NCBI RefSeq assembly: GCF_037892195.1
Contig: NZ_JATACI010000002.1
Span: 2,914,001 to 2,978,000, forward strand
Source of the DNA: Yoonia sp. GPGPB17
Lineage (GTDB): Bacteria > Pseudomonadota > Alphaproteobacteria > Rhodobacterales > Rhodobacteraceae
Direction of reading: 5' to 3'
Length of the DNA: 64,000 nt
Positions 7,159 to 58,392 of the stretch are shown here, piece by piece. Below the pieces are notes generated by a model. The model was given only the letters and a program-made list of their open reading frames with translations. It ran no database searches and was not told the DNA's origin. Position 1 is the stretch's first letter, and each line of letters opens with the position of its first letter. The position numbers and the translations under genes were made by a program.

Positions 7159-8696
7159 ATGGCGATCCAAGCGTCTGAAATTTCTGCGATCCTGAAGGAC
7201 CAGATCAAAAACTTCGGTCAAGAAGCCGAAGTGGCCGAAGTGGGCCGCGTATTGAGCGTTGGCGACGGTATCGCCCGTGTTTACGGCCTCGACAACGTCC
7301 AAGCCGGTGAGATGGTTGAATTCCCCGGTGGTATCCGTGGGATGGCGCTGAACCTCGAAGCTGACAACGTGGGTGTCGTTATCTTCGGTTCCGACCGTGA
7401 CATCAAAGAAGGCGACACTGTTAAGCGTACACAATCCATCGTGGACGTCCCCGTCGGTGACGAACTGCTGGGCCGCGTTGTGGATGGTCTGGGTAACCCG
7501 CTGGACGGCAAGGGCCCTATTAAGACAAAAACACGCGCTGTCGCAGACTCAAAGGCTCCCGGCATCATCCCCCGTAAATCGGTTCACGAGCCGATGGCAA
7601 CTGGTTTGAAATCTGTTGATGCCATGATCCCGATTGGCCGTGGCCAGCGCGAATTAATCATTGGTGACCGTCAGACTGGTAAGACAGCGGTTGCGCTTGA
7701 CACCATGCTGAACCAGAAATCCTATAACGATGCGGCCGCATCCGAGTACGACAAGCTTTACTGCGTTTATGTCGCTGTTGGTCAGAAACGTTCCACCGTT
7801 GCCCAGTTGGTTAAGAAGCTCGAAGAAAGCGGTGCGATTGAGTACTCCATCGTTGTGGCTGCAACCGCGTCCGACCCGGCACCAATGCAGTTCCTTGCAC
7901 CTTACGCGGCGACTGCGATGGCAGAGCACTTCCGTGACAATGGTCGCCACGCGCTGATCATCTATGATGATCTGTCCAAGCAGGCTGTGTCTTATCGTCA
8001 GATGTCCTTGCTGCTGCGCCGCCCACCAGGCCGTGAAGCTTACCCAGGTGACGTTTTCTACCTCCACTCCCGCCTGCTTGAGCGTTCAGCAAAGCTGAAC
8101 GAAGATAATGGCGCTGGTTCTTTGACAGCTCTGCCGATCATTGAAACCCAAGGCGGTGACGTGTCCGCGTTTATTCCAACCAACGTGATTTCGATCACCG
8201 ACGGTCAGATTTTCTTGGAAACGGAACTCTTTTACCAAGGTATCCGCCCAGCGGTGAACACGGGTCTGTCGGTGTCTCGTGTGGGTTCATCCGCGCAAAC
8301 CAACTCCATGAAGTCGGTTGCTTAAGCCCTGTTAAGCTTGAGCTTGCGCAGTACCGCGAGATGGCTGCCTTTGCGCAGTTCGGTTCCGATCTGGATGCCG
8401 CGACACAGCAATTGCTGAACCGGGGCGCACGTCTGACCGAGCTGATGAAGCAGCCACAGTATGCGCCGCTGACAAATGCCGAGATTGTATGCGTCATCTA
8501 CGCAGGGACAAATGGCTACCTCGACAAGATTGACGTCAAGGATGTGGGTCGTTTCGAGGCTGGTTTGCTGAACCACCTGCGCACGAACGCTTCTGAAGTG
8601 CTCGACATGATCACCAAAGAAGACCCAAAGGTCAAAGGTGAAGCGGAAGACAAGATCAAGGCGGCTATCGAAGCCTTCGCAAAAGACTTCGCTTAA
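7159..8696 (+). CDS. atpA: ATP synthase F1 subunit alpha (frame broken at 8323-8327)
   Basis: The sequence has the Walker A motif [13 protein letters not shown] and the alpha-subunit signature region. The first frame runs to TNSMKSVA and stops at TAA 8323-8325; the rest ([18 protein letters not shown] to AKDFA) continues two bases out of register. At the break the sequence reads GCT TAAGC CCT GTT where Ala-Gly-Pro-Val is expected. Replacing TAAGC by GGC restores a 511-residue protein, the family length. The downstream piece has no start signal of its own. As written the alpha subunit would lack its C-terminal domain, which is not viable for a sole copy, so an error or recoding is implied. Confidence 0.93.
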
Positions 8697-8721
8697 TCTT
8701 TGAGACAAAGGAGACTTTGCT

Positions 8722-9594
8722 TTGCCTAGTCTTAAGGACCTGAAAAATCGGATCGAGTCGGTCAAATCGACCCGCAAGATCACCAAGGCCATGCAGATGG
8801 TCGCGGCAGCAAAACTGCGCCGCGCCCAAGATGCAGCTGAGGCGTCACGCCCTTACACAGAGCGGTTCAACGCCGTGATGGGTGGGCTGGCCGCATCGGT
8901 TGGCGGATCAGAGTCTGCACCAAAGCTGTTGTCCGGTACGGGCAGCGATCAGGTGCAGTTGCTGATCATCATGACCGCGGAACGCGGGCTTTGCGGTGGC
9001 TTTAACGGCAACATAGCCAAGCTGGCCAAGACGCATGCTCAGGAGCTGCTTTCAGCAGGCAAGACTGTGAAGATCATCACAGTCGGCAAGAAAGGCCGCG
9101 ACGCGATCAAGCGTGACTTGGGCGATCACTTTGTCGGTCACGTTGACCTGACCGAAGTCAAGCGCGTGGGCTACGCTGACGCACAAGGCATCGCTAAGGA
9201 TGTTCTTGGCCGCTTTGACGCTGAGGAATTCGATGTGGCGACAATCTTCTTTGCGCGATTTGAAAACGTTGTCACCCAGCACCCGACCGCACAGCAGATC
9301 ATTCCAGCCAAGTTTGAGCAGGATGAAGAAGCTGATGTCACGCTTTATGACTACGAACCCGGCGAGGAAGAGATCCTGGCTGACTTGCTGCCACGTGGTG
9401 TGGCCACGGCGATCTTCAGCGCTTTGCTGGAAAACGCCGCGTCCGAGCAGGGTGCACGTATGTCTGCGATGGACAATGCAACTCGCAACGCCGGTGAGAT
9501 GATCGACAAGCTGACAATCGAGTTTAACCGCTCACGTCAGGCTGTGATCACCAACGAGCTGATTGAAATTATTTCGGGCGCGGAAGCGCTCTAG
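8722..9594 (+). CDS. atpG: ATP synthase F1 subunit gamma
   Basis: The 290-residue product starts [20 protein letters not shown] and ends with [20 protein letters not shown], the two coiled-coil helices of the central rotor shaft. The start codon is TTG at 8722, with AAAGGAG 12 bases before it; no ATG or GTG fits better. It lies 25 bases after atpA and 18 bases before atpD. No disruption is seen. Confidence 0.96.
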
Positions 9595-9612
9595 ACCCCG
9601 GAGAAGACCATT

Positions 9613-11038
9613 ATGGCAAACGCAAAAGGCAAGATCACGCAGGTTATCGGCGCCGTCGTCGACGTGCAGTTCGATGACCACCTGCCCGAGATTCTGAACG
9701 CGCTGACAACAGACAACAACGGCAAAGAGCTGGTTTTGGAAGTGGCCCAGCACCTTGGTGAAAACACAGTTCGCGCAATTGCGATGGACTCCACCGAAGG
9801 TCTGGTACGCGGCCAAGACGTCACTGACGCAGGCACAACTATCACCGTTCCTGTGGGCGACGCGACCCTTGGCCGCATCATGAACGTTGTGGGCGAGCCC
9901 GTTGACGAAAAAGGCCCCATCGGTGAGCAAGATCGCCGCTCCATCCACGCTGATGCGCCTGCTTTTGAGCAGCAGTCCACAGCGTCTGAAGTTCTAGTGA
10001 CAGGTATCAAGGTCATCGACCTGCTGGCCCCTTACGCGAAGGGCGGGAAAATCGGCCTCTTCGGTGGTGCGGGTGTTGGTAAGACTGTTCTTATTCAGGA
10101 ACTGATCAACAACATCGCGAAAGTGCACTCCGGTTACTCCGTCTTTGCGGGCGTAGGTGAGCGGACCCGTGAAGGGAACGACCTTTACTACGAATTCATC
10201 GAATCCGGTGTTATCGACGCCGAAGACCTGACCAAGTCCAAAGTGGCACTGGTCTACGGTCAGATGAACGAGCCTCCAGGTGCACGTATGCGTGTGGCGC
10301 TGTCTGGTTTGACAATGGCGGAGAGCTTCCGCGACCAGTCCGGTACAGACGTTCTGTTCTTTGTCGACAATATCTTCCGCTTTACACAAGCCGGTTCCGA
10401 GGTGTCAGCGCTTCTGGGCCGTATCCCATCCGCTGTGGGCTATCAGCCAACACTGGCGACCGACATGGGCTCCATGCAGGAACGTATTACATCGACAAAG
10501 AACGGTTCGATTACATCTGTTCAGGCGATCTACGTGCCTGCGGATGACTTGACCGACCCGGCGCCAGCGACGTCGTTTGCGCACTTGGACGCCACAACCG
10601 TTCTTAACCGTGCGATTTCCGAAAAGGGTATCTACCCTGCGGTTGACCCGCTCGATTCCACATCACGTCTGTTGGATCCTGCGATTGTGGGTGAAGAGCA
10701 CTATAGCGTGGCGGCTGACGTGCAGCAGATGCTGCAGCGTTACAAGTCGCTTCAGGACATCATCGCCATTCTGGGCATGGACGAACTGTCAGAAGAAGAC
10801 AAACTGACTGTTGCCCGCGCACGTAAGATCGAGCGCTTCTTGTCTCAGCCGTTTGACGTTGCACAGGTCTTCACCGGTTCCCCTGGTGTTCAAGTGCCGC
10901 TGGAAGATACAATCGCGTCGTTCAAGGCTGTTGTGGCTTAGCGAATACGATCACTTCCCCGAAGGTGCTTTCTACATGGTTGGCGGCATCGACGAAGTGA
11001 AAGCCAAAGCCGAGAAAATGGCTGCAGACGCAGCTTAA
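9613..11038 (+). CDS. atpD: ATP synthase F1 subunit beta (frame broken at 10939-10942)
   Basis: The catalytic subunit shows [14 protein letters not shown] (Walker A), [10 protein letters not shown] and the Walker B region [12 protein letters not shown]. The frame stops at TAG 10939-10941 after SFKAVVA; the conserved tail [15 protein letters not shown] continues one base out of register to 11038. The break reads GCT TAGC GAA where Ala-Gly-Glu is expected. Replacing TAGC by GGC gives 474 residues, the normal length. This matches the pattern in atpA, rplB and others. atpC follows after 12 bases. Confidence 0.93.
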
Positions 11039-57314: not shown

Positions 57315-57395
57315 CCCGAAGTTTTAAGTTCTACTTTATCGAAGGCGCACAAGTTGTATCGCAACGGAGATGCCTGAAAAACCACACCCCAACAC

Positions 57396-57424
57396 TTGCC
57401 ACCCTCACCCCTCCCTGCTACATC
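57396..57424 (+). promoter_or_regulatory. Candidate promoter of rplB-rpsS-rplV-rpsC-rplP
   Basis: TTGCCA (57396-57401), a 17-base spacer and TACATC (57419-57424) lie 123 bases before rplB. The ten bases CTGCTACATC are identical to those of the candidate atpH promoter, and the -35 boxes differ by one base. A new promoter is needed here because a terminator and the AbiTii gene separate rplB from rplW. Confidence 0.6.
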
Positions 57425-57547
57425 CCCGCAATCGCTTGGCCTCGGATTCGTTCCGGGGTCTTTGTGATATGACTAACGGGCACCTACGGGGGCCTTTCAC
57501 ATCAGGGTTCCACCTAGGGGCCCGCCAAGCAAACGGAAGAAGCTAAC

Positions 57548-58392
57548 ATGGCACTCAAGTCGTACAAACCGACGACGCCGGGCCAGCGTGGGCTGGTGCT
57601 GATCGACCGTTCGGAGCTTTGGAAAGGACGTCCTGTCAAATCCCTCACACAGGGTTTGACCAAATCGGGCGGCCGGAACAACACCGGACGGATCACTATG
57701 CGTCGTATTGGTGGGGGCGCTAAGCGTCTTTACCGCATCGTCGATTTCAAGCGGAACAAGCTGGACATGTCCGCTGTTGTCGCACGGATCGAATATGACC
57801 CGAACCGCACCGCATTCATCGCGCTGATCCAGTACGAAGACGGTACACAGAATTATATCCTTGCCCCACAGCGTTTGGCTGTTGGTGACAAGGTGATCGC
57901 ATCGGCCAAGGCTGACATTAAGCCCGGCAACGCAATGCCCTTCAGCGGCATGCCCATCGGTACGATCGTTCACAACATCGAAATGAAGCCAGGCAAAGGC
58001 GGCCAGATCGCCCGTGCAGCTTAAGCACCTACGCCCAGTTTGTGGGTCGTGATGGTGGTTATGCACAGGTCCGTTTGTCTTCTGGCGAATTGCGCCTGAT
58101 CCGTCAGGAATGCATGGCCACTGTCGGTGCTGTATCGAACCCTGATAACTCCAACCAGAACTTCGGCAAAGCGGGCCGGACCCGTCACAAGGGCATCCGC
58201 CCAAGTGTCCGTGGTGTTGCGATGAACCCGATCGACCACCCGCACGGTGGTGGTGAAGGCCGCACATCTGGTGGTCGTACGCCTGTGACACCTTGGGGCA
58301 AAGACACCAAGGGCAAGCGTACCCGTAACAAGAACAAAGCATCGCAGCGCCTTATCGTGCGTTCGCGTCATGCCAAGAAGAAGGGTCGTTAA
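57548..58392 (+). CDS. rplB: 50S ribosomal protein L2 (frame broken at 58022-58026)
   Basis: The product starts [20 protein letters not shown] and ends [20 protein letters not shown]. The frame stops after KGGQIARAA at TAA 58022-58024; two bases out of register it continues [20 protein letters not shown]. The break reads GCA GCT TAAGC ACC TAC where the invariant Ala-Ala-Gly-Thr-Tyr is expected. With GGC restored L2 has 280 residues, the usual length. The second half has no start site of its own and contains the essential [13 protein letters not shown] peptidyl-transferase loop, so the break cannot be tolerated as written. Confidence 0.94.

What the first reader, a model, noticed from the sequence alone, without database searches (positions are those of the whole stretch)
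8320..58026. Six genes broken at in-frame Ala-Gly pairs where GGC reads TAAGC, TAGC or GAAGC
Seen directly: atpA (8323-8327, GCT TAAGC), atpD (10939-10942, GCT TAGC), rpoB (18183-18179, GCC GAAGC), SGNH hydrolase (25845-25841, GCT TAAGC), DUF294 protein (31124-31121, GCT TAGC) and rplB (58022-58026, GCT TAAGC). In each, the family expects Ala-Gly, and replacing the odd bases by GGC restores the frame. AtpA, AtpD, RpoB and L2 then reach their normal lengths, and the SGNH stop falls exactly on the NUDIX start. All six are in codon phase on the coding strand, three on each strand of the window, while GCT-GGC pairs in tuf, fusA, rplV, rplX and rplD are intact. A base-calling error blind to reading frame should also hit GCTGGC out of phase, and I see none. 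Either a systematic consensus artefact or, much less likely, a recoding signal in essential genes.
Basis: partly seen in the sequence, partly recalled or inferred. Interest (0 to 1): 0.75.

Follow-up and report, generated by a model that had tools for sequence, protein, structure and literature searches.

The report
Sequencing errors at GCCGGC sites
Six conserved genes of a marine bacterium look broken, but very probably only because the published sequence is wrong at GCCGGC, the site of the bacterium's own restriction-modification system; it is an ordinary artefact with a traceable cause.

Summary
The six breaks are in the deposited sequence at the stated coordinates. They are very probably consensus errors, not recoding. 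(1) The altered word is best explained as the palindrome GCCGGC, not GCTGGC: 166 copies in the genome against 242-1456 in 20 congeners, while the control CGGCCG is normal. The commonest product, GCTTAAGC, also a palindrome, has 166 copies against 13-52 in 12 congeners. (2) The genome encodes a NaeI-family endonuclease (PF09126, 1.1e-39) beside a C5-cytosine methyltransferase. NaeI's site is GCCGGC. PF09126 was found in none of 20 congeners. (3) 'All in codon phase' does not hold genome-wide: in 859 kb, 28 of 37 confidently framed GCTTAAGC sites carry a +2 shift, 19 in phase and 9 out of phase. One out-of-phase site, in a YceG gene, was compared with nine relatives. (4) rpoB has lost a codon at another Ala-Gly pair; rplA and rplK each carry an unrelated one-base deletion. 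Methylation-motif errors are known from nanopore consensus sequences. Platform and methylation were not testable, and the products found do not account for the whole GCCGGC deficit.

The parts
8320..8327 (+). atpA break: GCTTAAGC, net +2
   Evidence: +2 against 7 of 7 relatives; tblastn split 8322/8328. The seven relatives read Ala-Gly with varied codons, none of them GCCGGC.
10936..10942 (+). atpD break: GCTTAGC, net +1
   Evidence: +1 against 7 of 7 relatives, one of which reads GCCGGC
   Evidence: codon present in 16 of 16 aligned rows (12 genomes); 10 of the 16 rows (7 of 12 genomes) read GCCGGC there
18179..18186 (-). rpoB break: GCCGAAGC on the coding strand, net +2
   Evidence: +2 in 16 of 16 rows, 12 genomes
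25841..25848 (-). SGNH hydrolase break: GCTTAAGC
   Evidence: pieces on both sides continue the relatives' proteins. The frame scoring was weak here, because the gene ends soon after.
31121..31127 (-). DUF294 protein break: GCTTAGC on the coding strand, net +1
   Evidence: pieces on both sides continue the relatives' proteins; +1 in frame scoring
58019..58026 (+). rplB break: GCTTAAGC, net +2
   Evidence: +2 against 7 of 7 relatives, 4 reading GCCGGC and 3 GCCGGT

Best explanation
A consensus artefact. The cell has a NaeI-type restriction-modification system whose C5-cytosine methyltransferase marks GCCGGC (specificity inferred from the NaeI-family neighbour and from the affected word). Native DNA was read on a platform that misreads the marked word, most likely nanopore (inferred; the platform is not known), and the consensus stayed uncorrected at part of the sites. 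The marked palindrome is mostly written as the longer palindrome GCTTAAGC, sometimes as GCTTAGC/GCTAAGC or GCCGAAGC, and at least once probably as a shorter in-frame form. GCCGGC in coding DNA lies mainly on Ala-Gly codon pairs, so most breaks look codon-phased. In the cell the genes are presumably intact. Shown: the word, the phase mix, the gene pair, its absence from 20 congeners. Inferred: methylation of GCCGGC, platform, intact genes.
For: GCCGGC 166 with control 1225 (ratio 0.14) against ratios of 0.37-1.02 in 20 congeners. GCTTAAGC 166 against 13-52 in 12 congeners. NaeI family PF09126 E 1.1e-39, PDB 1ev7 NaeI E 2.2e-19, next to a C5 methyltransferase; PF09126 in 1 of 21 genomes, this one. 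NaeI site GCCGGC in a paper passage. Phase mix of +2 breaks 19:0:9 over codon positions 1:2:3, against 25:4:13 for intact GCCGGC in relatives and 50:11:65 for GCTGGC. Out-of-phase break in a YceG gene: both pieces match PF02618 at profile positions 1-66 and 68-179, nine relatives differ by +2 modulo 3. Of 23 window places aligned to a relative's GCCGGC, 0 are intact; control CGGCCG 7 of 21, Fisher p 0.003. Nanopore consensus errors cluster in 5mC Dcm motifs (PMC6591954, passages).
Against: No reads, no methylation data, platform unknown. The products found do not fill the deficit: 22 intact GCCGGC and 13 GCTTAAGC in 400 kb not chosen by hits, where relatives' density (0.249 per kb) predicts about 100; true site avoidance or unseen products must make up the rest. 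GCTTAGC and GCCGAAGC are not in clear excess genome-wide. 6 of 37 confidently framed GCTTAAGC sites show no shift and 3 show +1, so not every GCTTAAGC is an error. Relatives do not fix the source word at every site (none reads GCCGGC at atpA). The NaeI homologue is distant from NaeI, and a second C5 methyltransferase lies on contig C4. PADLOC's best model for the NaeI-linked methyltransferase is DruM2, a cytosine methylase of another defence system, not a type II one.
Confidence: 0.92

Rival explanations
1. Programmed recoding: the ribosome slips, reads through or skips the extra bases at Ala-Gly pairs in many genes.
For: The six window sites are all in codon phase and lie in conserved genes.
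Against: No relative compared carries an insert at atpA, atpD, rpoB or rplB. 9 of 28 confident +2 sites are out of phase, and the one examined lies at Pro-Ala or similar. Net +1, net +2 and probably -3 forms occur. The affected word matches a restriction site encoded in the same genome.
Confidence: 0.003
2. Real mutations: the sequenced culture truly carries these changes, for example scars of NaeI cutting and faulty repair.
For: The sites coincide with the inferred NaeI word.
Against: atpA, atpD, rpoB and rplB would all be broken in one cell line, and a congener-based estimate puts GCTTAAGC alone at 100 or more above expectation; such a cell should not live (established knowledge). The same few rewritings recur, unlike end-joining scars.
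Confidence: 0.007
3. A consensus artefact with another trigger: a different modification enzyme (for example the second C5 methyltransferase on contig C4, or an undetected one), or a sequence-dependent misreading unrelated to methylation. The NaeI-type genes would be a coincidence.
For: Specificity of neither methyltransferase was tested; two are present; best PADLOC model of the NaeI-linked one is DruM2. Unrelated one-base errors exist in rplA and rplK.
Against: The depleted word equals the site of NaeI, whose family is in this genome and in none of 20 congeners. A misreading without a modification should also affect the congeners, though their platforms are unknown.
Confidence: 0.07

Closest known systems
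Methylation-induced consensus errors in nanopore assemblies (Dcm CCWGG in Klebsiella, PMC6591954; strain-specific motifs, PMC12016153; passages of both seen)
   Same: Errors concentrated in the recognition word of a strain's own methyltransferase; 5mC in the Dcm case; differs from strain to strain.
   Different: Here the motif is GCCGGC and the product is an insertion giving a new palindrome; in the passages seen, PMC12016153 describes base ambiguities. Platform not confirmed here.
NaeI restriction-modification system (type IIE, GCCGGC)
   Same: PF09126 endonuclease gene beside a C5-cytosine methyltransferase gene, same strand.
   Different: The endonuclease is a distant homologue (phmmer E 2.2e-19, residues 15-262 aligned); specificity and activity untested.
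Programmed frameshifting, stop-codon readthrough or bypassing
   Same: A stop or shift inside an otherwise conserved gene.
   Different: No conservation in relatives, many unrelated genes, mixed codon phases, several net lengths.

Membership tests
Methylation-induced consensus artefact | Errors sit in one recognition word, regardless of gene and reading frame | tested here: met
   GCCGGC depleted, GCTTAAGC in excess; 19 in-phase and 9 out-of-phase +2 shifts
Methylation-induced consensus artefact | The genome encodes a matching methyltransferase | tested here: inconclusive
   C5 methyltransferase beside a NaeI-family gene; its specificity is inferred, and a second C5 methyltransferase exists
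Methylation-induced consensus artefact | Unmodified (amplified) DNA reads correctly | not testable with these tools
   no reads held
NaeI-type restriction-modification system | NaeI-family endonuclease above the curated cut-off | tested here: met
   PF09126 136.8 bits, cut-off 25
NaeI-type restriction-modification system | Adjacent DNA methyltransferase gene | tested here: met
   L150:6395-7351 beside L150:5438-6322, both minus; PF00145 1.5e-69
NaeI-type restriction-modification system | Recognition of GCCGGC | not testable with these tools
   inferred from homology and from the affected word
Programmed recoding | Site conserved among relatives | tested here: not met
   no insert in any relative aligned at atpA, atpD, rpoB, rplB (7, 7, 12, 7 genomes)
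Programmed recoding | Site in a fixed codon phase | tested here: not met
   9 of 28 confident +2 sites are out of phase

The most novel reading that the evidence does not exclude
Probability: 0.05. Interest if true: 0.45.

Novelty: not a real feature. Interest (0 to 1): 0.2.

Why it matters
A strain-specific restriction-modification system can leave apparent lethal breaks, and less visible in-frame losses, in a public genome. The signature (GCCGGC depleted, GCTTAAGC in excess, a NaeI-family gene present) could be used to flag other assemblies of this kind, and warns against reading such breaks as recoding or as pseudogenes.

Tried and rejected
Source word GCTGGC: not depleted (about 0.7 per kb on each strand against 0.54-0.60 in relatives' stretches) and with another phase mix (50:11:65 in relatives). 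A longer motif around the six sites: none seen by eye in the flanks; no computation was made. A Viterbi frame scan gave 0 events with its first penalties and 185 with others, among them many ordinary gene overlaps by eye, so site-centred frame scoring was used. GCTTAGC and GCCGAAGC counts show no clear excess genome-wide; those forms rest on their frameshifts and on relatives. In the window, GCTTAAGC at 24859 is in frame, with a similar word in four relatives; 4219 stayed unclear, and the SGNH site 25841 was also unclear to the frame scoring and rests on proteins. The strain's own paper was looked for: PMC11482539 (passages) reports three Yoonia genomes from nanopore reads, of 3645, 4468 and 3982 kb, none matching 4213 kb, so the platform stays unknown. 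A report of GCCGGC misreading was looked for: the titles and abstract starts listed show none, but most of those papers were not opened (opened, passages only: PMC11649196, PMC12016153, PMC6591954).
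Full report
Observation. All six words are present at the stated coordinates, three on each strand. The window is part of contig C2 (3.84 Mb) of a 4.21-Mb genome in five contigs. It is Yoonia-like: the best hit of the SGNH protein is named Roseobacter sp. CCS2 and its contig has the length of G011:C10, and further hits are named Yoonia. 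Aligned relatives show net insertions of +2 (atpA, rpoB, rplB) or +1 (atpD) in every genome compared (7, 12, 7 and 7 genomes), and tblastn with relatives' ORFs splits at the same four places. For SGNH and DUF294 the separate pieces continue the relatives' proteins on either side. The breaks are in the deposited sequence and are not annotation slips.

Which word was altered. The genome points to GCCGGC. It holds 166 GCCGGC and 1225 of the control CGGCCG; 20 congeners hold 242-1456 and 452-1798, a ratio of 0.14 against 0.37-1.02. GCTGGC is not depleted. At rplB, 4 relatives read GCCGGC and 3 GCCGGT. Of 23 window places where some relative aligned at 80% identity or more has GCCGGC, the window keeps 0: three are broken sites (10936, 18179, 58019), one is an in-frame loss, 19 differ in other ways. 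For CGGCCG it keeps 7 of 21 (Fisher p 0.003). At single sites the relatives do not fix the source word; at atpA none of the seven reads GCCGGC. The commonest product, GCTTAAGC, is itself a palindrome, as expected if a palindromic site is misread alike on both strands; it occurs 166 times against 13-52 in 12 congeners.

Reading frame. The main argument against an artefact was that every break is in codon phase. I scored the coding frame on both sides of each GCTTAAGC in 859 kb: the window (64 kb), 20 stretches chosen for GCTTAAGC hits (395 kb after trimming an overlap) and 20 stretches spread over the contig without regard to hits (400 kb). Of 68 sites, 30 were unclear and 1 too near an edge; of the 37 confident ones, 28 have a net +2 shift, 19 starting at codon position 1 (the Ala-Gly phase) and 9 at position 3; 6 have no shift and 3 have +1. 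In the unbiased part alone the numbers are small: 13 sites, 3 confident, all +2, one of them out of phase. Intact GCCGGC in the relatives' stretches falls 25:4:13 over positions 1, 2 and 3 among 42 unshifted confident sites of 69 (four partly homologous genomes, so not independent). GCTGGC falls 50:11:65 in their long ORFs. The breaks follow GCCGGC. At 25/42 or 19/28 in phase, six of six has a probability of 0.044 or 0.098: unremarkable, the more so as an in-phase break makes an immediate stop and catches the eye.

An out-of-phase example. L132:8811, minus strand, lies in a YceG-family gene: the pieces on either side match PF02618 at positions 1-66 (E 7.6e-8) and 68-179 (E 1.4e-20) of the profile. 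Nine of the 19 congeners with a match were aligned there. Eight rows show a two-base gap at or next to the site and the ninth nets +2 from a one-base and a three-base gap. By my reading of the rows the relatives encode Pro-Ala in six, Pro-Glu in two and Pro-Ser in one, not Ala-Gly; none reads GCCGGC itself.

Cause. The genome has two C5 methyltransferases. One, L150:6395-7351 minus (G000:C2:2814395-2815351, about 99 kb from the window), is followed on the same strand by L150:5438-6322, a NaeI-family endonuclease: PF09126 E 1.1e-39, 136.8 bits against a cut-off of 25; PDB 1ev7, type IIE restriction endonuclease NaeI, E 2.2e-19. NaeI is given as GCCGGC in PMC7653180 (passage); the review PMC4081073 prints GCC|CCG in the passage seen, which I take for a misprint. 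PF09126 was found in this genome and in none of 20 congeners. So a word found by counting is the site of a system that, in this set, only this genome encodes. Against a simple reading: PADLOC's best model for this methyltransferase is DruM2 (E 1.7e-140), ahead of its type II models, and the other methyltransferase (contig C4) cannot be excluded. That modified motifs mislead nanopore basecallers is known: about 70% of consensus errors of then-current ONT basecallers in a Klebsiella benchmark lay in Dcm motifs (PMC6591954, passages), and strain-specific methylation-induced errors are described in PMC12016153 (passages). That M.NaeI-type enzymes make 5-methylcytosine is inferred from the PF00145 family.

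Further damage. At 16350-16365 the window's rpoB lacks one codon that 16 of 16 aligned rows (12 genomes) have, at an Ala-Gly pair reading GCCGGC in 10 rows (7 genomes): probably the same artefact in a form that keeps the frame, although a real deletion is not excluded. rplA (24082) and rplK (24825) each lack one base against four relatives, away from any GCCGGC; the pieces read as ribosomal proteins L1 and L11 (names by my recognition).

What does not fit neatly. In the 400 kb not chosen by hits there are 22 intact GCCGGC and 13 GCTTAAGC, where relatives' density predicts about 100 GCCGGC. True avoidance of a self-restriction site and unseen products probably make up the rest. GCTTAGC (163/180 against 44-260 in nine congeners) and GCCGAAGC (213/199 against 141-240) are not in clear excess. 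Why some GCCGGC survive is open: in the first sample intact copies in long ORFs were nearly all codon-phased (18:1:0), in the unbiased one not (6:3:4).

Verdict. A systematic consensus artefact, most probably at the methylation site of a NaeI-type system; not recoding. What is unusual is only the motif and its palindromic +2 product.

Noticed in passing
window 24082 and 24825, minus strand: One-base deletions in rplA and rplK against four relatives, not at GCCGGC words; likely general sequencing noise in essential genes.
   Followed up: partly
window 16350-16365: rpoB lacks one codon that all 16 aligned rows (12 genomes) have, at an Ala-Gly pair; an error of this kind breaks no frame and is easily missed.
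   Followed up: partly
L150:7602-8645 and 8642-10486 (G000:C2:2815602-2818486): SIR2 and HerA defence genes (PADLOC E 2.5e-114 and 3.1e-206) lie beside the NaeI-type pair on the other strand: a small defence island.
   Followed up: partly
L151:6649-8001 (G000:C4:15649-17001): Second C5 methyltransferase on a 37-kb contig, followed by a 305-aa ORF without Pfam or NCBIfam match; perhaps another restriction-modification pair.
   Followed up: no
PMC11482539, Table 1 (passage): Yoonia strain G8-12, assembled from nanopore reads with Flye, is listed with 175 pseudogenes against 12-109 in the other six genomes of the table; a similar artefact is possible there.
   Followed up: no
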